A stretch of DNA of 64,000 bases from NCBI GenBank assembly GCA_012103255.1, contig WLXD01000005.1, positions 266,560 through 330,559 of the forward strand, written 5' to 3'. A program made the position numbers and the translations under genes. The notes beneath the pieces were generated by a model, which was given only the letters and a program-made list of their open reading frames with translations, was not told where the DNA came from and did not search any database. Of the stretch, positions 1,502-21,972 are shown piece after piece. The stretch is from Acidobacteriota bacterium. GTDB lineage: Bacteria; Acidobacteriota; UBA890; WLXD01. Position 1 is the stretch's first letter. The number at the start of each line of letters is the position of its first letter.

Positions 1502-3988
1502 CTAACTCGCTGGCGCTTCCGGCCGTCGTGTCGGTGTTTTCGAGCGCCGCTTGCTGCCGCCGCTCGTCTTGCGAGGGGCCGGCGGCGATCCCGGGAGCGC
1601 GAGTTCGAGCATGTCGCCTACGCGCTCGACGAAGTGGAATTCGATTCCCTCCCTTACGTGCTCGGGAATCTCTTCCAGGTCTTTGGCGTTCTTCGCCGGT
1701 AACGCAATGCGGCGCAGGCCAGCGCGACGAGCAGCAAGTACCTTGTTCTTGACTCCGCCAACGGGAAGCACGAGCCCGCGCAGCGTCAGCTCTCCCGTCA
1801 TTCCCAGATCCGGAGCCACCGAGCGACCGGTGAACAACGAGGCCAAGGCGGAGACGATGGTCACACCAGCCGAGGGCCCGTCTTTGGGCGTGGCTCCGGC
1901 CGGCACGTGGACGTGGAGGTCGTGCTCGCGGAACGCCTTGCTCGGAATGCCGAGTTCATCGGCATGTGAGCGCAAGTACGACAGCGCGGCCTCGGCCGAC
2001 TCTTTCATCACGTCGCCAAGCTGACCGGTGAGTTTGAGATTGCCCTTGCCGGGCATTCGAGTTGCCTCGATGAAGAGGATGTCGCCGCCGGTGGCGGTCC
2101 AAGCGAGGCCTACCGCAACGCCGGGCACGGCTGTGCGCTCGGCGACCTCGGTGAAGTACTTCACGGGTCCCAGAAAGTCATGAAGTTCGGCCGGCGAAAC
2201 GTGAACGGCCGGGACTATCTCCGATTCGTCGTCAAGAGCCTCGGCGACGCGGCGTGCCTGAGCCCGACATATGGTGGCAAGTTCTCTCTCTAGCCCTCGT
2301 ACTCCGGCCTCTTCGGTATAGTCGCGCACGATTGCTGTGAGAGCGTTGTCGTCGAAGCTCAACTGCGCATCGGTGAGCCCGTGATCGTCGATTTGGCGCG
2401 GGACGAGATGGCGACGGGCAATCTCGACTTTGTCCTCCGCGGTGTAGCCCGGGATCTCCAGAATCTCCATCCGGTCACGCAGCACCGCCGGGATGTCCTC
2501 TGGGACGTTGGCGGTGGCGATGAACAGAACCCGAGATAGATCGAACTCGATCTCGAGGTAGTGATCGGAGAACGTGTCGTTCTGCTCGGGGTCGAGCACT
2601 TCCAGTAGTGCTGCCGAAGGATCCCCGCGAAAGTCCTGACCAACCTTGTCGATCTCGTCCAGCATGAACACTGGGTTCATTGATCCGGCGCGCTTCAGAC
2701 CCTGGAGAATGCGGCCCGGCATGGCGCCAACGTAGGTGCGTCGGTGTCCTCGGATCTCGGCTTCATCGTGCACTCCCCCCAAGGACAGGCGAACGAACTC
2801 GCGGCCGAGAGCGTTTGCGATCGAGCGCCCGAGCGACGTCTTCCCTACCCCCGGCGGGCCGATGAAGCAGAGGATCGGTCCACGCTTTTCCGGCTTGAGT
2901 CGCCGGACAGCGAGGTACTCGATGATGCGCTTCTTGACCTTCTCGAGATCGTAGTGCTCCGCGTCCAAGTGCTCGAGAGCGGCGCGGAGATCCAGATTGT
3001 CGGAGGTGTGGGTGCCCCACGGCATGTCCAATAGCCAGTCGATATACGAGCGCAGAACGTGATACTCGGCCGCCGCTGGCGACATGCGCCCGAGTCGATC
3101 CATTTCCTGTCGAGCGACCTTGCGTGCCGGCTCGGGTAGTTCGAGCTTGGCGATACGTTTCTCGAGCGCTTCAATCTCGGCGTCGTCCTCTTCTTCGCCG
3201 AGTTCCCGCTTGATTGCCCGAAGCCGCTCCCGGAGGTAGGCCTCTCGCTGGCCCCGATCGATCTCGCCCTGCACGTCCGACTCGATCTTCCTTGAGAGTT
3301 CGAGAACCTGCAGTTGGTGCGTGAGCAACTCGAGCAGTAGAGTCAGCCGCAATCCTGGCGTCGCGGTTTCGAGAAGTCTCTGCCGATCTGAAGTTCCGAA
3401 GCCGACATGGGCAGCGATGACGTCGACCAGTTCGCCCGCCGTATTGGCTCCGGCTGCGAGCGATTCGAGTTCATTGGGCAGGTTGGGCGAAATCTCCATG
3501 AGTCGGCTGAGCAGGCGATGCGCACTCTGCACCTGCGCTTCGATTTCCACCGTTTCCGGAGAGTCCGGGATCGGTATGCGATCGCAGGTAGCTCGCAGGT
3601 ACGGCGTTTCGGCGCTGGCCTCGCCGAGTTCAACTCGGGCGATCCCCTGCACAATAACGTTCAGATTTCCGTTGGGCAGTTTCAGTACCTTGACGATACG
3701 CGCCAGGCACCCCACGTCATGAACATCAGTCCGGACAGGGTTCTCGACATCTGGATCGCGCATCGCGGCGACGCCGATCATCCGATCGCCCTCGAACGCC
3801 TCCAGGATCAACTGGCGAGTCGATTCTTTCCCGACCAGAATCGGCAGGATAATCGTCGGGAACAGCACGGCCCCGCGCAGCGGCAGAATTGGCAGCGTTG
3901 CCGGCAGTTCGAACTCTGCTTGCTCGGCCGCGCCCGCGAGCTCAGCGCGGATCTCTGCTTCCAGGTCGCGCGTACGACTGTCAGACAT
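1502..3988 (-). CDS. lon: ATP-dependent protease Lon
   Basis: Cytoplasmic AAA+ serine protease that degrades damaged and regulatory proteins. From ATG 3988 it is 828 aa, with the N-terminal LON substrate domain (LPILPLRGAVLFP), a coiled-coil helical region, Walker A GPPGVGKTS, Walker B VFMLDEIDK, and the protease domain with nucleophile Ser in KDGPSAGVTI and catalytic Lys in GGVKNKVLAARRAG. The reading frame stays open upstream to an ATG at 4090 that overlaps the cbpA stop (ATGA). Those 34 extra residues are Arg-rich and unlike Lon, whereas ATG 3988 has a GAGG about 11 nt upstream, so I prefer 3988. The ATGA contact could still couple translation. It is the last gene of the lexA-like/clpB/cbpA/lon run. 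Confidence 0.95.
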   Translation of the reverse strand: MSDSRTRDLEAEIRAELAGAAEQAEFELPATLPILPLRGAVLFPTIILPILVGKESTRQLILEAFEGDRMIGVAAMRDPDVENPVRTDVHDVGCLARIVKVLKLPNGNLNVIVQGIARVELGEASAETPYLRATCDRIPIPDSPETVEIEAQVQSAHRLLSRLMEISPNLPNELESLAAGANTAGELVDVIAAHVGFGTSDRQRLLETATPGLRLTLLLELLTHQLQVLELSRKIESDVQGEIDRGQREAYLRERLRAIKRELGEEEDDAEIEALEKRIAKLELPEPARKVARQEMDRLGRMSPAAAEYHVLRSYIDWLLDMPWGTHTSDNLDLRAALEHLDAEHYDLEKVKKRIIEYLAVRRLKPEKRGPILCFIGPPGVGKTSLGRSIANALGREFVRLSLGGVHDEAEIRGHRRTYVGAMPGRILQGLKRAGSMNPVFMLDEIDKVGQDFRGDPSAALLEVLDPEQNDTFSDHYLEIEFDLSRVLFIATANVPEDIPAVLRDRMEILEIPGYTAEDKVEIARRHLVPRQIDDHGLTDAQLSFDDNALTAIVRDYTEEAGVRGLERELATICRAQARRVAEALDDESEIVPAVHVSPAELHDFLGPVKYFTEVAERTAVPGVAVGLAWTATGGDILFIEATRMPGKGNLKLTGQLGDVMKESAEAALSYLRSHADELGIPSKAFREHDLHVHVPAGATPKDGPSAGVTIVSALASLFTGRSVAPDLGMTGELTLRGLVLPVGGVKNKVLAARRAGLRRIALPAKNAKDLEEIPEHVREGIEFHFVERVGDMLELALPGSPPAPRKTSGGSKRRSKTPTRRPEAPAS

Positions 3989-4086
3989 TAGCGGCGGGCC
4001 TCGTAATCGGTCAGGGGGGCAGCTCCCCATGGTAGCCCGGTTGCGGCGCAAGGTTGTGGCTCTTTTCTGTACCGCGAGTCCGTCAA

Positions 4087-5022
4087 TCATGAATCCACCT
4101 TCGTATCCCGGCGGGGTTCATAGGGGTGTGATTCGCGGTACTCCTCCATCACTTCGTTGATTTCGGCCGTGATCTCGTGAGGCGTCTGGATAGAGACTTT
4201 TGCGAGCAGGTCTCCCTTGGACCCGTCAGGACCAAGTCCTTTGCCGCGCAGTCGAAACACCTGCCCGGTTTGCGTACCTGGCGGCAGGTTGATCGTGGCG
4301 TCGCCGACGAGGGTCGGAATGTCGATGGGCCCGCCCAGGATGGCTTCGTAGATCGTTATCGGTACCTCGGTGCGCAAGGTCTGGCCGTCTCGCCTGAATC
4401 GGGGATCCTTGGTCACGCTGATCTGGAGGATCAGGTCTCCGGGCGCGCCGCCCGCGCCGATCGACTCCCCCTTTCCCCGGACCCTCACCCTGGCCCCGTT
4501 CTCGACTCCGGCGGGAATGCGTACTTTCGACTTGGCGCTGCCGGCGGCCGCCCGGTACGCCACCGTGCGTTCGACACCGGCTCCAGCTTCCGCGAGGGTC
4601 AGCTGTAGCGGAACCTGAACGTCTCGGCCGCGACGCTGCCTCGGCGCGCTCTGTTGTCCGAATCCCCCGAGCCCGCCGAGGATTTCCTCGAACATCCCGA
4701 AGTCGCCGCTGGCGCGCGGCGCGCCGGGGGCTCCTACGCCACCTCGAAACAGGTTGCCGAAATGGCTCGTGAAGTCGGACATGTCGAAGTCTTGCGCGAA
4801 AGCGTCGGGCCCGATCTGGTCGTACTGTTTACGGCGCTTGTCGTCGCCGAGGACGTGGTACGCCTCGGAGATCTCCTTGAACCGCTCCTCGGCGTTGGTG
4901 TCGCCAGGGTTCACGTCCGGATGCCATTTACGCGCCAGCCGGCGGTAGGCTCGTTTGATCTCGTCTGCTGGCGCACCCTTCTCGACACCAAGCGCCGCGT
5001 AGTAGTCCTTTCTGGCCGCCAT
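4087..5022 (-). CDS. cbpA: DnaJ-family co-chaperone lacking the zinc finger (CbpA type)
   Basis: A 311-aa class B J-protein. The J domain (residues about 5-70) carries the HPD motif in RKWHPDVNPG, which stimulates DnaK ATPase. A Gly/Phe-rich linker (about 75-125) and the two beta-sandwich substrate domains of DnaJ_C follow. The four CxxCxGxG zinc repeats of classical DnaJ are absent, so it is CbpA-like. The ATG abuts the clpB stop with no gap, and its own TGA overlaps an in-frame ATG ahead of lon, so the genes are cotranscribed and probably coupled. It is expected to help DnaK and ClpB in disaggregation; dnaK and grpE are not in the window. Confidence 0.93.
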   Translation of the reverse strand: MAARKDYYAALGVEKGAPADEIKRAYRRLARKWHPDVNPGDTNAEERFKEISEAYHVLGDDKRRKQYDQIGPDAFAQDFDMSDFTSHFGNLFRGGVGAPGAPRASGDFGMFEEILGGLGGFGQQSAPRQRRGRDVQVPLQLTLAEAGAGVERTVAYRAAAGSAKSKVRIPAGVENGARVRVRGKGESIGAGGAPGDLILQISVTKDPRFRRDGQTLRTEVPITIYEAILGGPIDIPTLVGDATINLPPGTQTGQVFRLRGKGLGPDGSKGDLLAKVSIQTPHEITAEINEVMEEYRESHPYEPRRDTKVDS

Positions 5023-7647
5023 CTAGCTCAAGGCCTCGACTGTTTGCTGGGAATCCGTCGGCTCCCGCGAGCGGAAGACGAAGGTCGCGCTCGTGGGATC
5101 AATGTCGACAACGATCGTGTCGCCGACTCCATACTGACCCTCCAGAATGGCCTGTGCGAGCGGGTTTTCGATGAACTCGCGAATTGCTCTCTTGAGGGGG
5201 CGCGCGCCATAGACCGGGTCGAATCCGCGCTCTGCGAGCAGGTCGGCGGCTTCAGCAGAGACGTCAAGATCGAGGCCCCGATCGTTTAGGCGTTTGCCGA
5301 CGCGCTCGAGCTGAATCTGCACGATTGCACGCAGTTCCGTCGCCCCGAGCGGTTCGAAGATGACCATGTCGTCGATGCGATTGATGAGCTCCGGCCGGAA
5401 AGTCCGCCGCACCTCTTCCTGGACTGCTACGTGGCCGTCGGATAAGTCGTCGGCATCGGTACCGGTCAGGTGAGAACTCCCCAGGTTCGACGTCATCAAG
5501 ACAACTGTGTTGGCGAAACTTACCGTGCGACCCTTGCTGTCGGTGAGGCGGCCATCGTCCAGTACCTGGAGCAAGATGTTGAAGACGTCGGGGTGTGCCT
5601 TTTCGATCTCATCCAGCAAGATCACCGCATAGGGCCGGCGGCGAACCGCCTCAGTGAGGTGTCCGCCTTCATCGTGGCCAACGTAGCCGGGCGGGGCGCC
5701 AATCATTCGAGCAACGGCATGCCGTTCCATGTACTCGGTCATGTCAATCCGAATCAGGGCGTCTTCGCTGTCGAACATGAACTCTGCGAGTGCCTTCGCG
5801 AGTTCCGTCTTCCCCACACCGGTCGGGCCCAGGAAGAGGAATGATCCATATGGCTGCCCAGGCTCCTGAAGCCCTGCGCGAGCACGCCGAATCGCATCCG
5901 ACACTGCACGGACCGCGACGTCCTGCCCGACGACGCGCTCATGAAGTCTGTGCTCCATGGCGAGGAGCTTCTCCACCTCGCCTTCGATGAGCCGGCTCAC
6001 CGGAATGCCCGTCCATCGCGCGACGACGGTAGCGATGTCTTCGGCCGTGACATCCTCGCGCAGCAGAGCGTCGTCGCCATCCTGGATCTCCGCCAGTCGC
6101 GCTCGCGCGGCCTTGAGCTCATTTTCCTTGTCCGGGATCAGCCCGTAGCGAAGCTCCGCGGCGCGGCCGAGATCACCTTCTCGCTCAGCGCGGTCGGCTC
6201 CAGCACGCGCGTCGTCGATCGCCCGGCTGAGCTCCTGAATCGCGCGGACCTGGCGCACCTCCTCATCCCACCGCTGGCGCATCGCATCGTGCTCGATACT
6301 TAGACTCTCGAGATCGGTCTCCAGCGCGCCAAGGCGTTCGCGGGATGCGGGGTCCTTCTCCTTTCGCAGAGCCTCGCGTTCGATCTCGAGCTGACGCCGC
6401 CGCCGCTCCATTTCGTCGAGTTCGGCGGGCATGCTGTCGATCTCCACTCGCAATCTGGCAGCGGCCTCGTCAACAAGATCGATCGCCTTGTCAGGCAGGA
6501 ACCGGTCGGCGATGTAGCGCGCCGAGAGCGTGGCAGCCGCCACCAGGGCGCCGTCGCGAATGTGCACGCCATGGTGCACCTCATAACGCTCCTTTAGGCC
6601 GCGGAGAATCGAAATCGTGTCATGGACGAGAGGTTCGTCGACGCGCACCGGCTGGAAGCGTCGCTCCAGGGCCGGGTCCTTCTCGATGTACTTGCGGTAC
6701 TCGCTTAGCGTTGTGGCGCCGATAGCGTGGAGTTCGCCACGCGCCAGTGCCGGTTTGAGCATGTTCGACGCATCGACGGCTCCCTCCGAGCCGCCGGCGC
6801 CAACCACGGTATGAAGCTCGTCGATGAATAGGATCACGTCGCCCGATTCGGTGACCTCACGAAGGAACGCCTTCAGGCGGTCTTCGAACTCGCCGCGATA
6901 CTTGGCGCCGGCGAGCATCGCGGCGATGTCGAGAGTGATCACACGACGTCCGCGTAGCCCCTCGGGGATGTCTCCGTCGACGACGCGCTGGGCGAGGCCT
7001 TCGACGATCGCCGTCTTACCCACGCCGGGCTCCCCGATGAGAACCGGATTGTTCTTGGTCCGACGGGACAGCACCTGAACCAGGCGCCTGATTTCCTCGT
7101 CTCTTCCGATCACAGGGTCGAGCTTGCCCTGTCGCGCGCTTTCGGTCAGGTCCGCCCCGTACTGACCGAGGGCGTCGTACTTGTCCTCAGGATTTACATC
7201 GGTGACTCGCATGCTGCCTCGGATGTCGTGCAGAACCCTGAGCAGTTGATCCGGGACTACACCGCCTTCTCGCAGAATTCGGGCGGCGTGGCCCCCTGTC
7301 TCGAACAGGCCCAGGAGAAGGTGCTCTGTGGAGACGTACCTGTCGTCTAGTTCGTCTGCGACAGAGTTCGCTGACTCCAGAGCCTTCGCTACTTCCGGGG
7401 CGAGGTGCGGTTCGGCGGGGCGGTCCAGTGTGGGCAGACCGTCGATTGCGGATTCGGTCGCGGCGGAGAGACCTGACTTGTCGGCGCCGAGGCGTTCGAG
7501 CAGTCCAGTGACGACGCCGTCGGGCTGCGCGAGCAGCGAGGCGAGCAGGTGGACATCTGCCAGAGCGGAGTGGCTACGGCCCTGCGCCGTGTTCTGGGCC
7601 GACTGCAGGGCTTCCTGTGCTTTGACGGTGACGCGATCCAATCGCAT
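5023..7647 (-). CDS. clpB: Protein disaggregase ClpB (Hsp100)
   Basis: An 874-aa Hsp100 that rescues aggregated protein together with the DnaK system. In order: the N-terminal repeat domain ([14 protein letters not shown]), AAA-1 with Walker [10 protein letters not shown] and Walker [10 protein letters not shown], a long Glu/Arg-rich coiled-coil middle domain (about residues 410-520) that separates ClpB from ClpA and ClpC, AAA-2 with Walker [11 protein letters not shown] and Walker [10 protein letters not shown], and the C-terminal D2-small domain. Length is typical. The start lies 2 nt after the stop of the LexA-like regulator, which implies cotranscription under the promoter at 8306-8334 rather than a HrcA or HspR system. 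Confidence 0.97.
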
Positions 7648-7649
7648 GA

Positions 7650-8267
7650 CTAGGGCCTCCTGCCGCTGCCGGCTCCGGGGTGAGGAAGTCGAATGATTGC
7701 TGCAACGCGGCCGTATCCGCGGACGTCGGCCGATGGGTCGATTTCGCCGGCGACCGGCACCGCGCTGCGGCCTCTGTCGTCGACGCGAAGAATGGCAACG
7801 GCCGACCGCTGACGACCTATCACCAGATCACCGGGGCCGACTTCTTGATCCGAATCAGCAACGAGCAAGTCCCCCCGGAGAATTCCGGAGCTGCGCAACG
7901 CGTCGGTTGATGCCTCGAACGCCACTGCGTCCGGACCGCACCACGAGGCGTCGAGCGAGATCCGGCGCGCTCCCCCGCGATCGACTCCGCGCCCGCCGGG
8001 TGCGGATCCGATCACCGGCACGCTGCGGGCGCCGGGACGTTGGGGGCTGGGCACCGCAGCTCGTACTTCGATTCCCCGGGAGACGCCGGGGCGGCGCCGG
8101 ATGTACCCCTTGCGCTCTATCGCCTTCAGATGATCAACGATGCCGGCGGCTGAACGGAGTTCGAACGCGGCAGCGATCTCCATCAACGTCGGCGGCATCC
8201 CCTGCGCATGAACATGCTGCAGGATGAACTCGTAGATTGACTGCTGACGTCGTGTCAGGTGACTCAC
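7650..8267 (-). CDS. LexA-like repressor with a degenerate (inactive) autoprotease domain
   Basis: 205 aa starting at GTG 8267, with GAGG nearby as ribosome site. The N-terminal winged helix is clearly Lex[41 protein letters not shown]. The C-terminal half still aligns with the S24 fold ([21 protein letters not shown]). However, the catalytic Ser (S119 in E. coli LexA) aligns with Ala123, the catalytic Lys (K156) aligns with Leu160, and the Ala-Gly scissile bond aligns with Gly91-Gly92. It therefore should not self-cleave on RecA and is unlikely to be the SOS repressor. It lies 2 nt before clpB, so it may be an autoregulated repressor of clpB-cbpA-lon; that role is inferred. The signal it senses is unknown. 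Confidence 0.85.
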
Positions 8268-8305
8268 TGCCGCCTCGTTCTGTTCGATTTTTGAGAACGA
8301 GGTTC

Positions 8306-8334
8306 ATCATACCGAAAAAATTTACGGTATACAA
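8306..8334 (-). promoter_or_regulatory. Sigma-70-type promoter of the LexA-like/clpB/cbpA/lon operon
   Basis: On the minus strand TTGTAT (8334-8329) is followed after exactly 17 bp by TATGAT (8311-8306), 39 nt before the GTG of the LexA-like gene. The spacer is filled by a palindromic operator candidate. I see no CIRCE (TTAGCACTC-N9-GAGTGCTAA) or HAIR element. The transcript would start near 8299. Based on sequence only. Confidence 0.6.
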
Positions 8335-8349
8335 GAAATAATTACGGTA
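8310..8349. promoter_or_regulatory. Tandem 20-bp operator-like repeats in the repressor promoter
   Basis: Two adjacent 20-bp units, 8310-8329 and 8330-8349. The first is a palindrome, TACCG-N10-CGGTA, lying between the -35 and -10 boxes. The second shares TACCGTAA at the same end (minus strand) and matches the first at 15 of 20 positions, but its other arm is degraded (TTGTA). The arm-N10-arm geometry resembles LexA operators (CTG-N10-CAG), which suits binding by the adjacent winged-helix protein. The 20-bp phasing puts both sites on similar faces of the helix. Confidence 0.55.
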
Positions 8350-10024: not shown

Positions 10025-11278
10025 ATGGCTGATCTGACCGGCCCACTGATCGGCTTGGTCATTCTGCTCGTACTGTCCGGATTCTTTTCGAGTTCGGAAA
10101 CAGCTCTCATGGCGGTCAGTCGGTACCGGCTGCGCTACCTGGAACGCCACGGGAACAAGCGGGCAGCGATGGTGCGCCGACTGCTGCGGGACCCCGATCG
10201 CCTGCTCTCGGCGATTCTCCTCGGCAACAACTTCGTCAACATCGCGGCTTCTGCGCTGGCTACGGTCATCGCGATCGAACTGGCGGGCGAAAACGGCGTT
10301 CTTGTCGCCACGGTGGTGATGACGGCGCTCATCCTCATTTTCTCCGAGATCGCGCCTAAGTCGGTGGCGGCTCGGAGACCAGAGGTGATGTCTCTGCTCG
10401 TCGCTCCCGTGGTCCGAGCGGTAGTGTGGTTGCTTCACCCGTTCGCTGTCGCGGCAGCCGCGGTGGCGGGTGTGTTGACGCGACCATTCATCGGATCAGA
10501 AGCCGCGACACCGGTGGTCTCCGAGGAAGAGATCCAGGGGATGTTGCAGCTGGGCGAAGAAGAGGAAGTGATCGCCCGTGAGAAAGGTCGAATGTTGAGT
10601 TCGATCTTCCGTCTCACCGAAACGACGATCGAGGACGTGATGATCCCGCGGACCCAGATCCGAGCTGTGGCGCGGAACGCGAGCCCGGCCGAGGTTGTTG
10701 AAGCGATTCGTGGCTCGGGTGCGACCCGGATCCCCGTCTACGGCGCGGATCTCGACGACATTGTCGGGATCCTGCACTCGAAGGATGTGTTTGCGTACTG
10801 GGAGCGTGTGGACGATCTGGATATAGCGGCGATCATGCGACAGCCACTCTTCATTCCGGAAACGGCCACCCTCGAGACGCTGCTCCGCATGCTGCGGCAC
10901 CACCGCCAGCATCTGGCGGTTGTTGTGGACGAGTTTGGCGGCGTTGAGGGCATTGTCTCGCTCGAAGATCTGCTCGAGGAGATCGTGGGCGAGATTGAAG
11001 ATGAGCACGATGCACCCGCTACACCTCAGATGATGGAGATGCAGGACGGCAGTTTGCTCGTGGAAGGCGCCTGTCCGCTCAACTTGCTCAACCGTAGCTA
11101 CCACCTCGCTCTCGAGGCGGAGGACTCCAGTACTTTGGCCGGGCTCATCATGGAGCTCAGCGGAGAGATTCCGGCTCCCGGGTCCCGAATCGAGCACGGA
11201 GAACTTGTTTTCAACGTGCGTCGCGCGAGCCGCAACCGCATCGACCTGATCAGGATCGAGGGCCACTCCGGTCAGTAG
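10025..11278 (+). CDS. CNNM/CorC-HlyC family transporter-like membrane protein with CBS pair
   Basis: 417 aa from ATG 10025, preceded by CTGGAGG. The N-terminal DUF21/CNNM transmembrane domain (about residues 1-185, FFSSSETALMAVSRYRLR and SAILLGNNFVNI) is followed by a CBS pair (about 205-330, IEDVMIPRTQIRAV and VVDEFGGVEGIVSLEDLLEEIVGEI) and the C-terminal CorC_HlyC domain (about 345-415). Members are linked to Mg2+ or Co2+ efflux; older annotation as hemolysin is misleading. Substrate cannot be told from sequence. Tail-to-tail overlap of 7 nt with moeA. Confidence 0.92.
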   Translation: MADLTGPLIGLVILLVLSGFFSSSETALMAVSRYRLRYLERHGNKRAAMVRRLLRDPDRLLSAILLGNNFVNIAASALATVIAIELAGENGVLVATVVMTALILIFSEIAPKSVAARRPEVMSLLVAPVVRAVVWLLHPFAVAAAAVAGVLTRPFIGSEAATPVVSEEEIQGMLQLGEEEEVIAREKGRMLSSIFRLTETTIEDVMIPRTQIRAVARNASPAEVVEAIRGSGATRIPVYGADLDDIVGILHSKDVFAYWERVDDLDIAAIMRQPLFIPETATLETLLRMLRHHRQHLAVVVDEFGGVEGIVSLEDLLEEIVGEIEDEHDAPATPQMMEMQDGSLLVEGACPLNLLNRSYHLALEAEDSSTLAGLIMELSGEIPAPGSRIEHGELVFNVRRASRNRIDLIRIEGHSGQ

Positions 11279-12462
11279 AGGGTGACCTCGACCTGAGAGC
11301 CTGCAGCGACGTGCGTGTCTTCTGCAGCGATTTCGATCCAGCCGTCGGCCGCAGCCATGCTGGACACCGCGCTCGAGAACGTAAACGTGGGTATGGCGCG
11401 GTCGCCGTCCAGTTGTACTGGGAGAAAATGGGTCTTGTCTGCAGGCGACTCGACGTCGACGGTCAGAACTGCGGCGCGGGGCGGTTGTATCGTTTCCAGG
11501 TGTCCGATCTTGCGGACCAGAGGAACCGCTGTAACGTACGCCATCATCAGACAACTAGTGGGGAATCCCGGGAGTCCCACAAGAGGGCGGTTGTTCACGG
11601 TGGCGAGCAGAAGTGGTTTGCCCGGCCGCACCGCGACGCCGTGGAGGTGGATCTCCCCTACCTCGTCGACGACATCACTGACAAGGTCACGTCGTCCGAC
11701 CGATGTGCCGCCGATGGTGATCGTGAGGTCGACGTCAGACTCGCGCAGTGACTCCCTCAGCGCGTCGCGGTCGTCAGCGACGATCGGAGTGCGGTCGACG
11801 ATACAACCGAGTTGCGTGAACAGCGCGGTAAGAGCTGACGCGTTCGAATCGTAGACCTGCCCCGGCGCCAATGGTCCTTCACCAAGCGGGATCACCTCGT
11901 CACCGGATGACATCACCCTGACTCGGGGAGCCCGCAGCACCTCGACTTCCGTCACGCCGCTAGCGGCGCAGGCGGCGATTCGACTCGGATGCAGCCGCTG
12001 CCCGGCGCTCGCCACCACCTGGTCGATCGCTAGATCTTCGGCCTGGCGCGACACGTGCTGCCCGATCACGAATGCCGAGTCCGCGGTGACGGCGCCTTCC
12101 TCGCGCAGAGCGTGCTCCACAGGGACAACACAATCGGCGCCGGTAGGCAGAGGCGCCCCGGTTGCGATCTCCACGCATTCACCCGGGTTGAGTTGAGACT
12201 CCTCTTCGACATCGCCGGCGGCGATCCGGCCGATCAGTCGCAGCGCTTTGTGGCTCGCGGTGTCCGATGCCCGCGCGGCGAACCCATCCATGGCTGCCCG
12301 ATCAGCGTTTGGGACATCGACGGCGGAGCTCGCGTCCGAGGCGAGCACCCGGCCAGTTGCGTCGCTCAATGGAGTGATCTCGCTATCGCTAATCGACACC
12401 GCCATCTCGGCGAGTACGCGACGGACCTCTTCGAACGGAGCGAGCCCACCGAACGGGCGCAT
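11272..12462 (-). CDS. moeA: Molybdopterin molybdenumtransferase MoeA
   Basis: 396 aa from ATG 12462. Inserts molybdate into adenylated molybdopterin to form Mo cofactor. Motifs: PNADRAAMDGFA (substrate site), GAPLPTGADCVVPVE, the MoCF-biosynthesis domain with SSGDEVIPLGE, TIGGTSVGRRDLV, and VRPGKPLLLATVNNRPLVGLPGFP. The frame remains open upstream to 12531, overlapping the divergent queG start. M24 begins the recognisable MoeA sequence and has AGGA upstream. Its product would be needed by the molybdenum hydroxylase encoded at 17973-21972, about 5 kb away. Confidence 0.94.
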   Translation of the reverse strand: MRPFGGLAPFEEVRRVLAEMAVSISDSEITPLSDATGRVLASDASSAVDVPNADRAAMDGFAARASDTASHKALRLIGRIAAGDVEEESQLNPGECVEIATGAPLPTGADCVVPVEHALREEGAVTADSAFVIGQHVSRQAEDLAIDQVVASAGQRLHPSRIAACAASGVTEVEVLRAPRVRVMSSGDEVIPLGEGPLAPGQVYDSNASALTALFTQLGCIVDRTPIVADDRDALRESLRESDVDLTITIGGTSVGRRDLVSDVVDEVGEIHLHGVAVRPGKPLLLATVNNRPLVGLPGFPTSCLMMAYVTAVPLVRKIGHLETIQPPRAAVLTVDVESPADKTHFLPVQLDGDRAIPTFTFSSAVSSMAAADGWIEIAAEDTHVAAGSQVEVTLY

Positions 12463-12520
12463 TTCGGAACGTTCCTGGCGGCACATGGCGGCCGAGTCTA
12501 GCAGGTTAGACTCGTGCGTC

Positions 12521-13672
12521 ATGGCCACCACAGACCTCGTTCAGAAGGTGCGTGCCGCCGCTCTGGCGGAGGGTTTCGACGACTGCGCGGCAGCGCCGAT
12601 CGCGGAGCTTCCGGCGGGAGGTCGACTGCGTGAGTGGCTTGCTCAGGAGATGCACGGGACCATGCGCTGGCTCGAACGTGATCCGGCGCGACGCGCGGAC
12701 CCACGTCGGGTGGTCGCCAGTGCCAAGACGGTTCTGGTCGTGTCGCGGAGCTATTTCACGGATCTCCCAGTGGCGGAGTCACCGCGAGACGGAAGGATCT
12801 CCCGCTACGCCTGGGGAGCGGAGTACCACGACGTTATGGGCGCGGCCATCAAACGACTCTACGCGCGTATCGAAGAGCTGATGCCGGGCGCCAGCGGCCG
12901 CTACTACGTTGATACCGGCCCCGTGATGGAGAAGGCCTGGGCGGAGGTGTCCGGTCTCGGCTGGATTGGGAAACACACCAACGTCATTCAGGTCGGCACC
13001 GGTTCCTGGTTCTTCCTCGGTGCGATCGTTCTCGACTGCGAACTCCCGGTGCCGAAGCCGGCGCCTGATCACTGTGGCAGTTGCGTCGCCTGCATTGACG
13101 CCTGTCCTACCGGGGCGATCGTCGCGCCGTATGTGCTGGATGCTCGACGCTGTATCTCGTATCTGACCATCGAGCATCGCGGTGCTATTGATCGAGAGTT
13201 TCGCGCGGACATCGGAAACCGCGTGTTCGGTTGCGATGATTGCCAGGAGGTGTGCCCGTGGAATCGGTTTGCGCAGCTCGGCGATTCCGCTCGACCCTTC
13301 ATGCCGGCGCCGGGGCGGCAGGCGGCGCCGCTGCTCGAGCTGTTCGCGCTGAGCGTCGACGAGTTTCGTGAAAGGTTTCGGCGAAGCCCGGTGAAGCGCG
13401 CAAAGTACGAGGGTTTCAGGCGCAACGTCGCGATTGCGCTCGGCAACAGTGCAGACCCGAGCGCCGTGGGCGCTCTCGCGCGGGCGCTCGATGACGTGTC
13501 CGCGATTGTCCGAGGGCATAGCGCCTGGGCGCTCGGCCGCCTCGGTGGAAGCAACGCAAGGACAGCACTGCGGGAAGCGCTAGTGACCGAGTCAGATCCA
13601 TGGGTGCGCGACGAGATCGCATACGCGGAAACGATGATCGACGGCAGTTCAGAGCCCGTCGTGGCATCCTAG
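12521..13672 (+). CDS. queG: Epoxyqueuosine reductase QueG, with C-terminal HEAT-like repeats
   Basis: 383-aa cobalamin-dependent enzyme for the last step of queuosine synthesis on tRNA. Two ferredoxin clusters are seen in CGSCVACIDACPTGA and FGCDDCQEVCPWNRF, with the family signatures YYVDTGPVMEKAWAE, GWIGKHTN, and CISYLTIEHRG between the clusters. The last 70 residues form a HEAT-like repeat region (AVGALARALDDVSAIVRGHSAWALGRL) as in many QueG proteins. The open frame begins at 12248, but ATG 12521 starts the conserved part (MATTDLVQKVRAAALAEGFDD, shown in two pieces in the family). Divergent from moeA with a 58-nt gap. Confidence 0.93.
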   Translation: MATTDLVQKVRAAALAEGFDDCAAAPIAELPAGGRLREWLAQEMHGTMRWLERDPARRADPRRVVASAKTVLVVSRSYFTDLPVAESPRDGRISRYAWGAEYHDVMGAAIKRLYARIEELMPGASGRYYVDTGPVMEKAWAEVSGLGWIGKHTNVIQVGTGSWFFLGAIVLDCELPVPKPAPDHCGSCVACIDACPTGAIVAPYVLDARRCISYLTIEHRGAIDREFRADIGNRVFGCDDCQEVCPWNRFAQLGDSARPFMPAPGRQAAPLLELFALSVDEFRERFRRSPVKRAKYEGFRRNVAIALGNSADPSAVGALARALDDVSAIVRGHSAWALGRLGGSNARTALREALVTESDPWVRDEIAYAETMIDGSSEPVVAS

Positions 13673-17652: not shown

Positions 17653-17976
17653 GTGTTCCAGCTGCTCGGCTTTCTTGCACTGCTCGCCTTTGGCGGAGTC
17701 ATGGCGCTCTTTGCTCTCTTGCTCATCGCGCCGCTTGTGCTTCTCGCGAAGGTTGTCGGTTGGAGCGTTCACGCGGTAGCCAATGTCGCGGGCGCTGTCG
17801 TGGGCGCGCTTCTGCTCGTGCCCCTCGGGCTATTGGTTCTACCCGTGGCCCTCGTGGTGCTGCTTGTCGCCGGACTGGTCGTGCTGAAGCTACTGCTTTT
17901 GGCCGCACCCTTGCTGCTGATGATCGCGGCGATCTGGCTATTCGTGTCCTTGGTGCGGCGACCCGCGATCGCCTAG
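17653..17976 (+). CDS. Small very hydrophobic membrane protein, unknown function
   Basis: 107 aa from GTG 17653, with an excellent AGGAGGTCACTC ribosome site. Nearly the whole chain is Leu/Val/Ala: about three or four transmembrane helices broken by GWSVHAVANVAG and ending LVRRPAIA. No family recognised. Follows the CPBP gene by 62 nt on the same strand and overlaps the convergent hcrB-like gene by 4 nt. The strong translation signals make it likely real. Confidence 0.65.
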   Translation: MFQLLGFLALLAFGGVMALFALLLIAPLVLLAKVVGWSVHAVANVAGAVVGALLLVPLGLLVLPVALVVLLVAGLVVLKLLLLAAPLLLMIAAIWLFVSLVRRPAIA

Positions 17977-18977
17977 CGGACGCCGCCCGGCGCGACTTCA
18001 AGGCCGCACAGGCGTGCGAGCGCTCGCCTCACGTGAACCCTGGTTACCTGTTTGCGCCAGTAGTAGACCAGGTCGGCGTTGTCGAGCGGCGTTGCCCTCT
18101 TGTAGGCGAGTTCGGCCGCGGCTTCGCACAGCTCAAGCGTGGGTGTCTCACCTTCCATCAGCTCGCTGACCCCTGTGACGGCAAGCGGATGGGTATGCAC
18201 AGCACCGAGCACGAGGCGTGCGTCACGCACGCGGCCGTCCTCGATCCGCAGGCTCGCTCCGACTCCCAGGATCGGGAAATCGAAACTGCCGCGGCGCCGA
18301 ACCTTGACGTAGGTCGAGCGTTGCCCGTTGCCCGGAGCCGGCACCCGAACAGCGGTCATCAGTTCGCCCGGCTTCAAGGTCAGGTACTCGATGCCGTCGT
18401 CCTGGTACATATCACCAAGCGAGATCGTGCGCGGTCCGTCGGTTCCGAGGACATCGACGGTTGCGCCGAGCGCCATGAGGATGGGTGCCGAATCGCTGGA
18501 TGAGATCGCCCAACATTTGCTCGAGCCCGGCGCGACCAGGCAGATGTCGCCGTCCTTTTTCATGCAGAACCCAACACTGCGCCGCCACTCGTAGGTCTGG
18601 TTGTAGTAGTTGCATCGAGTGTCGACGCACAGGTTCCCGCCAATGGTTCCAACACGTTGGATCTGGAGGTTGGCCACCTGGCCGGCTGCTTCGGCCAGAC
18701 CTGGGTACGACTCGCGCACGTTCGGCGCGGCGGCGAGTTGGCGAAGGGTGACTCCGGCGCCAAGCTCCAACCCGTCATCGGTCTGGAGATCGCGACCCCC
18801 TTCGAGTCGACGGATCCCAACAAGCACCGGAGGTTCGAATTGCCGGCGCTTCATGTTCGGGATCAGATCGGTGCCACCAGCTACAAACATTGCGCGGCCT
18901 TCCGACTCGCCCCAGAGATCCACGGCTTCCGCCGCGCTACGAGCATTGCGAAAATCAAAGGGTGGAAGTCTAAGCAT
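17973..18977 (-). CDS. hcrB: FAD/[4Fe-4S] subunit of a 4-hydroxybenzoyl-CoA reductase-like enzyme
   Basis: 334 aa of the FAD-binding (CoxM/XdhB) class of xanthine-oxidase-family enzymes: FAD motifs FVAGGTDLIPNMK and VGTIGGNLC. Unlike ordinary CoxM proteins it has the inserted loop (about residues 117-156) with Cys122, Cys138, Cys146 and Cys155 (DTRCNYYNQ, GFCMKKDGDIC, SSKCWA). This is the hallmark of the HcrB subunit of 4-hydroxybenzoyl-CoA reductase, where it holds an extra [4Fe-4S] cluster that inverts electron flow. Start overlaps the large-subunit stop (TGATG). The substrate is inferred from this loop and from the crotonase/thiolase neighbours. Confidence 0.8.
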   Translation of the reverse strand: MLRLPPFDFRNARSAAEAVDLWGESEGRAMFVAGGTDLIPNMKRRQFEPPVLVGIRRLEGGRDLQTDDGLELGAGVTLRQLAAAPNVRESYPGLAEAAGQVANLQIQRVGTIGGNLCVDTRCNYYNQTYEWRRSVGFCMKKDGDICLVAPGSSKCWAISSSDSAPILMALGATVDVLGTDGPRTISLGDMYQDDGIEYLTLKPGELMTAVRVPAPGNGQRSTYVKVRRRGSFDFPILGVGASLRIEDGRVRDARLVLGAVHTHPLAVTGVSELMEGETPTLELCEAAAELAYKRATPLDNADLVYYWRKQVTRVHVRRALARLCGLEVAPGGVR

Positions 18978-21400
18978 CAGGATTCCTCCCCGCGGCGCAC
19001 CGTAGGTATCCAGTCTTCTGGGGGTTGGTCGTACCAGACAGGATCAACGGCGAGGACCTCTCCGAAATCGACTTCGGGCACCCCGCCAGGTCCAAACCGG
19101 CCGGGACCGCCCTTCTCCTTGTCAGCGAGCGCCGCCATGACCTTCTCCGGCGTGATCGGCAGTTCATCGATGCGCACGCCGACAGCGTCGTAGACGGCGT
19201 TGGCAACCGCAGGTGGCATTGGCAGTAGCGGGCCCTGCCCCACTTCCTTGGCGCCGAACGGCCCCTCGCCATCGATGCTCTCGACAATGAATGTCTCCAC
19301 CGGAGGCATTTCAAGAAACGTCGGACTCTTGTACTCGAGCATCGACGGGATCTTGTGAAGACCGTTTCGGAACACCTGCTCTTCCATGAGGATCTCGCCG
19401 AGCGCCATATAGACGCTGCCCTCGACCTGTCCCTCCACGAGCATCGGGTTCACAGCTCGCCCCACATCGTGGGCCATCCAGACCCGCTCCGGAGTGACGA
19501 TGCCTGTTTCCGGATCGACGTCGACCAGTACCGCGGCCGCGCTGTAGGAGTAGGCGGGCGACGGACCAACACCCGAGCCCTTGTAGGGGCCTGCAAGGCG
19601 TGGCGGTGTGTACGAGCCGGTTGAGCTGAGTTGACCGAACATGGCTTCGGCGATCGGCACAGCTTCAGCGAAGCGCATGCCTTCGCCGGTGCCATGGTGT
19701 TCGACGCGGCGGTGGCGCAGAACCAGTTCGGTGGCGTTGAGTCCGAGTTTTTCTGCCACTGCGGCTACGAGCATGTCGCGGATTTTCTCGGCGGCTTCCT
19801 TCGCAGCATTGCCCATCATGAAGGTGACGCGGCTTGAGTACGAACCCAGGTCGATCGGCGTCGTGTCGGTATCGGAAACAACCAGCTGGACGTCGTCCGG
19901 GGTCAGGCCAAGAACCTCCGCGACGGTCATTGCCAGAACCGAGTTCGATCCCTGGCCGATATCGATTTCCATGCATTTGGCGCAAACACCGCCGCCGCGA
20001 TCGACCTTAAGGTCGACGGACGTGTGCGGCATCTTGTTCCAGTAGATCGGCAACCCGGCCCCGGATAGGTACGAGCCGACGGCGACCCCGATACCTTTGC
20101 CGTAAGGAAGCGTGCCGCGCACGCGCTCGAAATCCGCTGCTTCCGCGATCTTGGCGAGACACTCGTCGAGTCCGCACGAGGTGACGCGCATGTGGTTCGC
20201 TGTCATCGTGTATTCATCCACGAGCATCGAACGTCGCATCCGCACCGGATCGAGGCCGAGTTTCTCTGCCACCTTGTCGAGGTGAATCTCCAACGCATAG
20301 CGCGGCTGCGGCGTGCCATGACCACGCTTCGGGCCGCAAGCCGGCTTGTTGGTGAAGACTCGAACACCGCGGAATCGGTAGTTCGGAATCTTGTACGTCA
20401 CCGTTTGGAGCGCGCCGGTGTAATAGGTGCTCGCGACTCCATAGCTGCCGTAGGAGCCGCCGTCGACGAAGGATTTGAAATCGAGCGCCGTGATGTGGCC
20501 CTGGTCGTCGTGCCCCGTGCGTAGCCACATGAGAACCGGGTGGCGCCCCCGATGCATGTAGAAGACCTCCTCTCGCGTGAGAGTGATCTTGACGGGCCGA
20601 CCGCTCTCCATCGAAAGTTTGGCCGCGCAGAACTCATGAGGGAATGGATCGGACTTGCCGCCGAATCCTCCGCCGTTTGGCGTGGCGACGATGCGGATCC
20701 TGCTCGCTGGCATGTCGAGCACCTTCGCCATCGCTTTGTGTACGTAGTGTGGCGTTTGTGTGGATGACCAGACGGTCAGCCGACCATCTGCGCCGTACTG
20801 CGCCACCGCGGAATGCTCTTCCATCGCGAGATGGTTGTTGCCGGAGTAGAAGTAGACGCCTTCGTGCACGGTATCCGCACGTTCGATGGCGCCCTCAACG
20901 TCTCCGAAGTGCAGATTGACGAGCTTGTGCACGTTGTCGCGAGGGCCGTAGTCGTGAATACGGGCCTCCTCGGCGACCGGGGCCAGACCCTCGTCGATAT
21001 CGAAGGCCGTCGGAAGTTCTTCGTATTCGACCTCGATCAATCGAACAGCTTCCTCGGCGGTTGCCTCGTCGACGGCCGCGACGGCAGCAACCGGGTCGCC
21101 CACAAAGCGAACGCGATCGGTTTCGAGGGGGTACTCGTCCTCACTCACCGGCAGGATGCCGTACTTACGCGGCATGTCGTCTCCCGTGATGATCGCCTTC
21201 ACGCCGGGCAGCGCAGCCGCCTTGGAGGTGTCGATCGAGACGATCCGAGCGTGCGGCACGATGGCACCCAACATCTTGCCAAAGAGCATCTTCGGCAGAT
21301 CGATGTCGTCGGCGTAGATCTCCTGGCCGGTCGACTTGGTGAGGCCATCGACCTTGGCGGCTGGCGTTCCAATGACGTTGAGCTTGTGGCGGTCGCTCAC
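18977..21400 (-). CDS. hcrA: Molybdenum cofactor-binding large subunit, 4-hydroxybenzoyl-CoA reductase-like
   Basis: 807 aa from GTG 21400, overlapping the iron-sulfur subunit stop as GTGA. The long open frame upstream to 21676 is the shadow of that gene. The family fold shows in TGQEIYADDIDLPKMLFGKM, PNGGGFGGKSDPFPHEFCAAKL, AKCMEIDIGQGSNSVLAMTVAE and VYMALGEILMEEQ. At the site of the usual active-site glutamate (GVGEP in xanthine dehydrogenase) it reads GAKEVGQGPLL, giving Gln722; the codon is CAG at 19235-19237 (complement). The C-terminus has a 40-aa extension (GRFGPGGVPEVDFGE onward). Probably reduces or hydroxylates an aromatic acyl-CoA; exact substrate unknown. Confidence 0.82.
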   Translation of the reverse strand: MSDRHKLNVIGTPAAKVDGLTKSTGQEIYADDIDLPKMLFGKMLGAIVPHARIVSIDTSKAAALPGVKAIITGDDMPRKYGILPVSEDEYPLETDRVRFVGDPVAAVAAVDEATAEEAVRLIEVEYEELPTAFDIDEGLAPVAEEARIHDYGPRDNVHKLVNLHFGDVEGAIERADTVHEGVYFYSGNNHLAMEEHSAVAQYGADGRLTVWSSTQTPHYVHKAMAKVLDMPASRIRIVATPNGGGFGGKSDPFPHEFCAAKLSMESGRPVKITLTREEVFYMHRGRHPVLMWLRTGHDDQGHITALDFKSFVDGGSYGSYGVASTYYTGALQTVTYKIPNYRFRGVRVFTNKPACGPKRGHGTPQPRYALEIHLDKVAEKLGLDPVRMRRSMLVDEYTMTANHMRVTSCGLDECLAKIAEAADFERVRGTLPYGKGIGVAVGSYLSGAGLPIYWNKMPHTSVDLKVDRGGGVCAKCMEIDIGQGSNSVLAMTVAEVLGLTPDDVQLVVSDTDTTPIDLGSYSSRVTFMMGNAAKEAAEKIRDMLVAAVAEKLGLNATELVLRHRRVEHHGTGEGMRFAEAVPIAEAMFGQLSSTGSYTPPRLAGPYKGSGVGPSPAYSYSAAAVLVDVDPETGIVTPERVWMAHDVGRAVNPMLVEGQVEGSVYMALGEILMEEQVFRNGLHKIPSMLEYKSPTFLEMPPVETFIVESIDGEGPFGAKEVGQGPLLPMPPAVANAVYDAVGVRIDELPITPEKVMAALADKEKGGPGRFGPGGVPEVDFGEVLAVDPVWYDQPPEDWIPTVRRGEES

Positions 21401-21972
21401 GCCGATCCCCTCTTGCCCTCGATCGGCTCCAGGTCGGGTCCGTGCTCTGCTGCGGGTCGCGCGGGTATCCGATGTTCCGGGCTCGTCTCGCCCGCGGCGC
21501 GGCGTTCGGAGACACGGTCGGCCGCGAGTTCGATCGCTTCGAGGATTTTTAGATAGCCGGTGCAGCGGCAGAGATTGCCTGCGAGGTAGTCGCGAATCTC
21601 TTCGCGCTTCGGCGCCGGATTGTCGCGGAGCAGTGCCGCCGCGGAAACGAGCATTCCGGGACTGCAATAGCCACACTGCGAAGCGCCTAGTTCGCCAAAC
21701 GCGATCTGGAGTTCATGTGGCGCAGATCCGGCGGCGAGCCCCTCCACGGTACCGATCTTCGAATCTTCTGCGTCGAGCGCCAGAAGCAAACAGGAGAGCA
21801 CTGGTTCGCCGTCGAGAAGCACCGTGCACGTGCCGCACTCGCCGAGTTCGCAGCCGTGCTTGGTTCCGGTCAGGCGAAGGTCCTCACGAAGGACCTCCAT
21901 CAGGGTCTTGTTGCCATCCACGACAATGTCGTGAACCTCACCGTTGACCGTCAACTGGATTCGTTCTTTCAA
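21397..21972 (-). CDS. hcrC: Two-[2Fe-2S] subunit of the molybdenum hydroxylase (HcrC/CoxS type)
   Basis: 191 aa from TTG 21972. Plant-type [2Fe-2S] domain with Cys41, 46, 49 and 61 (GCELGECGTCTVLLDG) and the helical [2Fe-2S] domain with Cys100, 103, 135 and 137 (QCGYCSPGM, GNLCRCTGY). All eight ligands are present. The last 45 residues (RVSERRAAGETSPEHR onward) extend beyond the usual family length and look disordered. Translationally coupled to hcrA by a 4-nt overlap. 58 nt upstream is the crotonase gene on the same strand. Confidence 0.9.
   Translation of the reverse strand: MKERIQLTVNGEVHDIVVDGNKTLMEVLREDLRLTGTKHGCELGECGTCTVLLDGEPVLSCLLLALDAEDSKIGTVEGLAAGSAPHELQIAFGELGASQCGYCSPGMLVSAAALLRDNPAPKREEIRDYLAGNLCRCTGYLKILEAIELAADRVSERRAAGETSPEHRIPARPAAEHGPDLEPIEGKRGSA

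What the first reader, a model, noticed from the sequence alone, without database searches (positions are those of the whole stretch)
7650..8267. LexA paralogue that has lost its protease residues heads the clpB-cbpA-lon operon
Seen: a clear LexA DNA-binding domain and a recognisable S24 fold, but the positions of Ser119 and Lys156 of E. coli LexA are Ala123 and Leu160, and the scissile Ala-Gly is Gly-Gly. Known: LexA needs the Ser-Lys dyad for RecA-stimulated self-cleavage. Inferred: this is a non-cleavable repressor re-used to control protein quality-control genes, perhaps relieved by heat, by a ligand, or by degradation by Lon encoded in the same operon. Such feedback would be a heat-shock control circuit unlike HrcA, HspR or sigma-32.
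Basis: partly seen in the sequence, partly recalled or inferred. Interest (0 to 1): 0.78.

Follow-up and report, generated by a model that had tools for sequence, protein, structure and literature searches.

The report
Protease-dead LexA guarding a chaperone operon
In one small order of Acidobacteriota, a copy of the DNA-damage repressor LexA has lost its self-cutting residues and sits, with its own conserved operator, where other Acidobacteriota carry the heat-shock repressor HspR, heading an operon of protein-repair genes (clpB-cbpA-lon); it looks like a DNA-damage switch recruited to protein quality control.

Summary
ORF 7650-8267(-) is a LexA-type protein without the Ser-Lys dyad (Ala123, Leu160; Gly-Gly for Ala-Gly). 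Six Acidobacteriota genomes from two families of one order carry it, always as lexA2-clpB-cbpA-lon, and none of the six keeps a working Ser-Lys pair. Of 75 other LexAs sampled, 72 keep cleavage site and dyad, and none lies beside clpB. The six form one clade (100/100), so the loss is old and shared, and the DNA-binding domain is under strong purifying selection. The genome also has an intact LexA (lexA-imuA-imuB, with its own SOS box), HrcA/CIRCE (groESL, hrcA-grpE-dnaJ) and HspR (dnaK-dnaJ-hspR). A 20-bp inverted repeat (TACCGTAAATTTTTTCGGTA, 8310-8329) fills the 17-bp -35/-10 spacer of the lexA2 promoter in all six genomes. At up to 3 mismatches it occurs nowhere else in this genome. In four other acidobacterial families the slot is hspR-cbpA-clpB, so LexA2 appears to have displaced HspR. 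Best reading: a non-cleavable autorepressor of one proteostasis operon. Relief by proteotoxic stress (chaperone titration, heat, Lon) is inferred, not shown. Non-cleavable LexAs (Synechocystis) and HspR circuits are known; this combination is a new variant.

The parts
7650..8267 (-). lexA2: LexA-type repressor without Ser-Lys dyad, 205 aa, GTG start
8073..8267 (-). LexA DNA-binding domain (residues 1-65)
   Evidence: Pfam PF01726, 80.5 bits; 58-85% identical between orthologues, dN/dS well below 1
8310..8329 (-). Operator 1, TACCGTAAATTTTTTCGGTA, inverted repeat lying between -35 and -10
   Evidence: conserved at the same place in all six orthologous promoters; unique locus in the genome at <=3 mismatches
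8330..8349 (-). Operator 2, TACCGTAATTATTTCTTGTA, imperfect abutting copy
   Evidence: 2 mismatches to the search pattern; an imperfect copy also precedes operator 1 in G001, G002 and G003, none seen in G006/G007
8306..8334 (-). Inferred sigma-70-type promoter: TTGTAT (8334-8329), 17 bp, TATGAT (8311-8306)
   Evidence: TTGNNN-N17-TANNNT found in all six; the -35 is weak, and the threshold scan did not call it
5023..7647 (-). clpB, disaggregase; starts 2 bp after the lexA2 stop
   Evidence: TIGR03346 1287 bits, over cut-off
4087..5022 (-). cbpA / DnaJ-family co-chaperone without zinc-finger domain
   Evidence: Pfam DnaJ and DnaJ_C
1502..4090 (-). lon protease (likely true start near 3988)
   Evidence: TIGR00763 931 bits; homologues align from residue 34-36

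Best explanation
LexA2 is a dimeric LexA-fold repressor that can no longer cut itself. It binds a 20-bp operator placed between the -35 and -10 elements of the single promoter in front of its own gene, blocks RNA polymerase there, and so holds lexA2-clpB-cbpA(-lon) at a low, self-limiting level. It does the job that HspR appears to do in other Acidobacteriota: local autorepression of the ClpB/CbpA module. Because RecA-stimulated cleavage is not available, repression must be relieved another way, most likely when proteotoxic stress withdraws or unfolds the repressor (titration of a chaperone partner such as CbpA or DnaK, thermal unfolding, or degradation by Lon from the same operon). Shown here: loss of catalytic residues, conserved operon, conserved operator, separate SOS LexA, HspR in the equivalent slot elsewhere. 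Inferred: DNA binding, repression, promoter, dimerisation. Guessed: the inducing signal.
For: (1) Six orthologues at nth/trmI-lexA2-clpB-cbpA-lon in two families, all without a Ser-Lys pair. (2) Of 75 other LexAs from many phyla, 72 keep AG/S/K and none lies next to clpB. (3) The six form a clade with support 100/100; they score over 300 bits against their profile, next best 130 bits among 396 Acidobacteriota. (4) The operator fills the 17-bp spacer in all six promoters and is found at no other locus in the 4.8-Mb genome at <=3 mismatches. (5) DNA-binding domain dN 0.08-0.31 against dS of 1 or more. (6) An intact LexA heads lexA-imuA-imuB with box CAGACATTTGTCTG, which also precedes a dnaE2-like gene. 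(7) HrcA with CIRCE at hrcA and groESL, and HspR at dnaK-dnaJ-hspR, account for the other chaperone operons. (8) hspR-cbpA-clpB occupies the slot in four other families. HAIR-like sites within 250 bp of clpB are 4, against 0.19 expected, in 24 other Acidobacteriota loci, while the six lexA2 promoters have none within 4 mismatches. (9) In the same order, three genomes with no full-length ClpB also lack LexA2.
Against: No binding, expression or heat data exist. The C-terminal domain evolves fast (23-69% identity) and its last part is shortened, so dimerisation is assumed. The -35 hexamer is poor in several members. The co-absence genomes are 72-86% complete. lon may have its own promoter in the roughly 98-bp gap, although none was called.
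Confidence: 0.72

Rival explanations
1. LexA2 still belongs to the SOS response: it is cut in trans by the intact LexA or another S24 peptidase, or is displaced by it, so that clpB-lon is a DNA-damage operon.
For: The operator resembles the E. coli SOS box (16 of 20 positions in G007). Trans-cleavage by LexA is known in principle (own knowledge).
Against: The scissile bond and its surroundings are not conserved among the six. The genome's SOS box is a different sequence and is absent from this promoter.
Confidence: 0.1
2. LexA2 is a repressor tuned by a ligand, redox state or phosphorylation, as proposed for Synechocystis LexA, and clpB-cbpA-lon responds to a non-heat stress.
For: Synechocystis LexA lacks the Ala-Gly site and the Ser, and is thought to be modulated by phosphorylation (PMC7567884).
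Against: No invariant Cys, Ser or other obvious sensor residue in the C-terminal domain of the six.
Confidence: 0.25
3. LexA2 is a decaying duplicate with little function, carried along by the operon.
For: Loss of catalytic residues; fast-evolving C-terminal domain; a second LexA paralogue (LexA-b) also losing its dyad.
Against: Open frame, placement and operator kept across two families; DNA-binding domain dN/dS about 0.05-0.3; retained with clpB in every genome of the order in which ClpB was found.
Confidence: 0.04

Closest known systems
LexA of E. coli and other bacteria (SOS repressor, S24 family)
   Same: LexA DNA-binding domain, LexA fold, operator similar to CTGT-N8-ACAG in one member
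   Different: No Ser-Lys dyad, no Ala-Gly site, proteostasis operon instead of SOS genes
Synechocystis LexA (Sll1626)
   Same: Non-cleavable LexA regulating non-SOS genes (PMC7567884)
   Different: That one is reported to act on many genes of various processes; LexA2 is a paralogue beside an intact SOS LexA and appears to have one operon
HspR/HAIR (Streptomyces dnaK, clpB, lon; Helicobacter cbpA-hspR)
   Same: Autoregulated repressor gene inside a chaperone operon, overlapping target set clpB/lon/cbpA (PMC6032397, PMC9775585); occupies the same slot in other Acidobacteriota
   Different: MerR-type protein and HAIR operator; unrelated to LexA
HdiR of Lactococcus lactis
   Same: LexA-like regulator induced by heat and DNA damage (Savijoki 2003, title as cited in PMC1592510)
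   Different: Works through RecA and ClpP, so presumably cleavage-competent; regulates SOS-type genes

Membership tests
LexA (SOS repressor) | LexA DNA-binding domain | tested here: met
   PF01726 80.5 bits, cut-off 23.7
LexA (SOS repressor) | Curated whole-protein score (TIGR00498) | tested here: not met
   100.5 bits against 110.95
LexA (SOS repressor) | Ser-Lys dyad and Ala-Gly cleavage site | tested here: not met
   A/L and GG here; lost in all six orthologues
LexA (SOS repressor) | LexA fold | tested here: met
   AF2 pLDDT 90; Foldseek best 3jso, E 6e-12, prob 1.0; global TM only 0.42, probably because domain orientation differs
LexA (SOS repressor) | RecA-stimulated self-cleavage | not testable with these tools
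   needs biochemistry
LexA (SOS repressor) | Controls SOS genes through the genome's SOS box | tested here: not met
   SOS box CAGACATTTGTCTG belongs to the other LexA; LexA2 operator only at its own operon
HspR-type heat-shock repressor | MerR-type DNA-binding protein | tested here: not met
   LexA domain instead
HspR-type heat-shock repressor | HAIR operator in the promoter | tested here: not met
   best match 5-6 mismatches in all six promoters
HspR-type heat-shock repressor | Repressor gene inside the chaperone operon it controls | tested here: met
   operon and operator position; control itself inferred
HspR-type heat-shock repressor | Derepression by heat or chaperone titration | not testable with these tools
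   needs expression data
Non-cleavable regulatory LexA (Synechocystis type) | Loss of Ala-Gly and catalytic Ser with DNA-binding domain kept | tested here: met

The most novel reading that the evidence does not exclude
A further dedicated class of bacterial heat-shock repressor besides HrcA and HspR: a protease-dead LexA that senses protein damage (unfolding, a chaperone partner, or Lon turnover in a feedback loop) and replaced HspR on the ClpB operon, running in parallel with HrcA and HspR in the same cell.
Probability: 0.45. Interest if true: 0.75.

Novelty: new variant of a known kind. Interest (0 to 1): 0.62.

Why it matters
It would be a clean case of a DNA-damage repressor losing its trigger and being rewired, by operator and operon capture, into a proteostasis circuit, with the displaced regulator (HspR) still visible in relatives. 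It also makes testable what the LexA C-terminal domain does once catalysis is gone, and whether a LexA can respond to protein damage.

Tried and rejected
A restored dyad was sought in three alignments and not found. An RNA thermometer was considered: the lexA2 leader of this species folds into a 9-bp stem that covers the likely Shine-Dalgarno GAGG (-13.6 kcal/mol), but z is only -1.2 (23 of 200 shuffles as good) and no such stem was seen in the four other leaders folded; rejected as the shared mechanism, kept as a note. The sigma-70 threshold scan found no promoter, so the promoter rests on conserved spacing only. A wider regulon for the LexA2 operator was sought and not found. An origin from a particular outside group was not resolved by the tree. 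Papers combining LexA with clpB control: nothing relevant.

Full report
What is there. The window is part of a 4.8-Mb genome in 9 contigs. Its genus-mates in the public set are Acidobacteriota MAGs (OFTM26, OFTM137). The ORF 7650-8267 on the minus strand encodes 205 aa with a strong LexA DNA-binding domain and a whole-protein LexA match just under the curated cut-off. In all alignments Ser119, Lys156 and Ala84-Gly85 of E. coli LexA fall on Ala, Leu and Gly-Gly. An AlphaFold model has mean pLDDT 90, and its best PDB matches are full-length LexA structures. The global TM is modest (0.42), probably because domain orientation differs; the DNA-binding domain alone matches 1lea at 0.9 A.

Not a fluke of one genome. 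Five orthologues sit at the same locus, with nth or the trmI-like gene upstream and clpB-cbpA-lon downstream, in two families of the same order (in G006 the contig ends within cbpA). The residue at the Ser position is A, Q, E, N, G or, in G003, lies in a gapped stretch where the aligner sets an S; the residue at the Lys position is L or V. No alternative catalytic pair is invariant. The six form a clade with support 100/100, so loss of catalysis most simply dates to their common ancestor. Among 396 Acidobacteriota genomes the six score above 300 bits and the next hit 130 bits. Three genomes of the same order have neither a full-length ClpB nor LexA2, though they are only 72-86% complete. The DNA-binding domain is under purifying selection (dN 0.08-0.31, dS 1 or more); the C-terminal domain is looser.

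The operator. Aligning the six upstream regions shows one conserved island, TACCGTAAATTTTTTCGGTA in the window (8310-8329), TACTGTAAATTATTACAGTA in G007. In every genome it fills the 17-bp gap of a TTGNNN-N17-TANNNT promoter. In this genome a second, imperfect copy abuts it (8330-8349), and a degenerate copy is visible in G001, G002 and G003. With up to three mismatches the pattern occurs in the whole genome only here, so the regulon appears to be the operon itself. The -35 is weak, and an automatic scan did not call the promoter.

The rest of the stress network in this genome. An intact LexA (PAG site, GDSM, TVK) heads a lexA-imuA-imuB-type cassette at contig C6; its box CAGACATTTGTCTG also precedes a dnaE2-like gene (the imuA, imuB and dnaE2 names are judged by eye from the translations). 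HrcA is present, with a perfect CIRCE before hrcA-grpE-dnaJ and a two-mismatch CIRCE at groESL. An HspR-like protein (101.8 bits, cut-off 105) ends a dnaK-dnaJ-hspR operon with a HAIR-like site upstream of dnaK. LexA2 therefore has a slot of its own: ClpB, CbpA and Lon.

Who held that slot before. In four other acidobacterial families (loci L164, L166, L167, L174) the operon is hspR-cbpA-clpB, and HAIR-like sites are enriched just upstream of clpB in the phylum (4 seen, 0.19 expected). The six lexA2 promoters carry none (5-6 mismatches at best). The simplest history is that LexA2 displaced HspR-type control of the ClpB module in this order; direction and timing are inferred.

How it probably works. 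Steric autorepression from an operator in the promoter spacer is the best-supported step (inferred from position and conservation). What lifts repression is open. By analogy with HspR, where DnaK is a corepressor in Streptomyces and CbpA weakens HspR binding in Helicobacter (PMC6032397), a chaperone partner encoded in or near the operon is attractive; Lon turnover and direct thermal unfolding are alternatives. None is tested.

Against what is known. Non-cleavable LexA with non-SOS targets is known in Synechocystis (PMC7567884). HspR control of clpB and lon is known in Streptomyces (PMC9775585). A LexA-like regulator induced by heat, HdiR, is known in Lactococcus, but it acts with RecA and ClpP (title cited in PMC1592510). 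IrvR is a RecA-independent LexA-like protein, but it still needs its Ser-Lys pair (PMC7101444). I found no report of a LexA heading a chaperone operon, within an open-access library. The finding is therefore a new variant: known protein family, known circuit type, new pairing.

Noticed in passing
L035:5367-5975 (contig C7:206 kb of this genome) and L046-L050, L052, L053: A third LexA paralogue (LexA-b), beside ruvX-mltG in G000 and G002, is also losing its dyad: Lys is Gly in this genome, Ser is Ala or Trp in G001-G003, Lys is Arg in three genomes of the other family, both intact only in G006. Stepwise decay of catalysis within one order.
   Followed up: partly
L097, L147, L150 (Deltaproteobacteria/Myxococcaceae): LexA-like proteins with PG/SG in place of AG, Gly or Ala for Ser, and Arg for Lys; L097 and L147 group with an intact relative (L132), suggesting separate losses from that in LexA2.
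   Followed up: no
window 8273-8302: Leader of lexA2 has a 9-bp perfect stem (CCTCGTTCT/AGAACGAGG) covering a likely Shine-Dalgarno sequence; not seen in the other leaders folded, z about -1.2.
   Followed up: partly
window 17973-21972 (-): Three genes that look like a molybdopterin-dependent dehydrogenase (FAD subunit, large subunit, 2Fe-2S subunit), with moeA at 11272-12531; judged by eye only.
   Followed up: no
G004, G005, G008 (same order): No full-length ClpB found in three genomes of the order at 72-86% completeness; possible real loss together with LexA2.
   Followed up: partly
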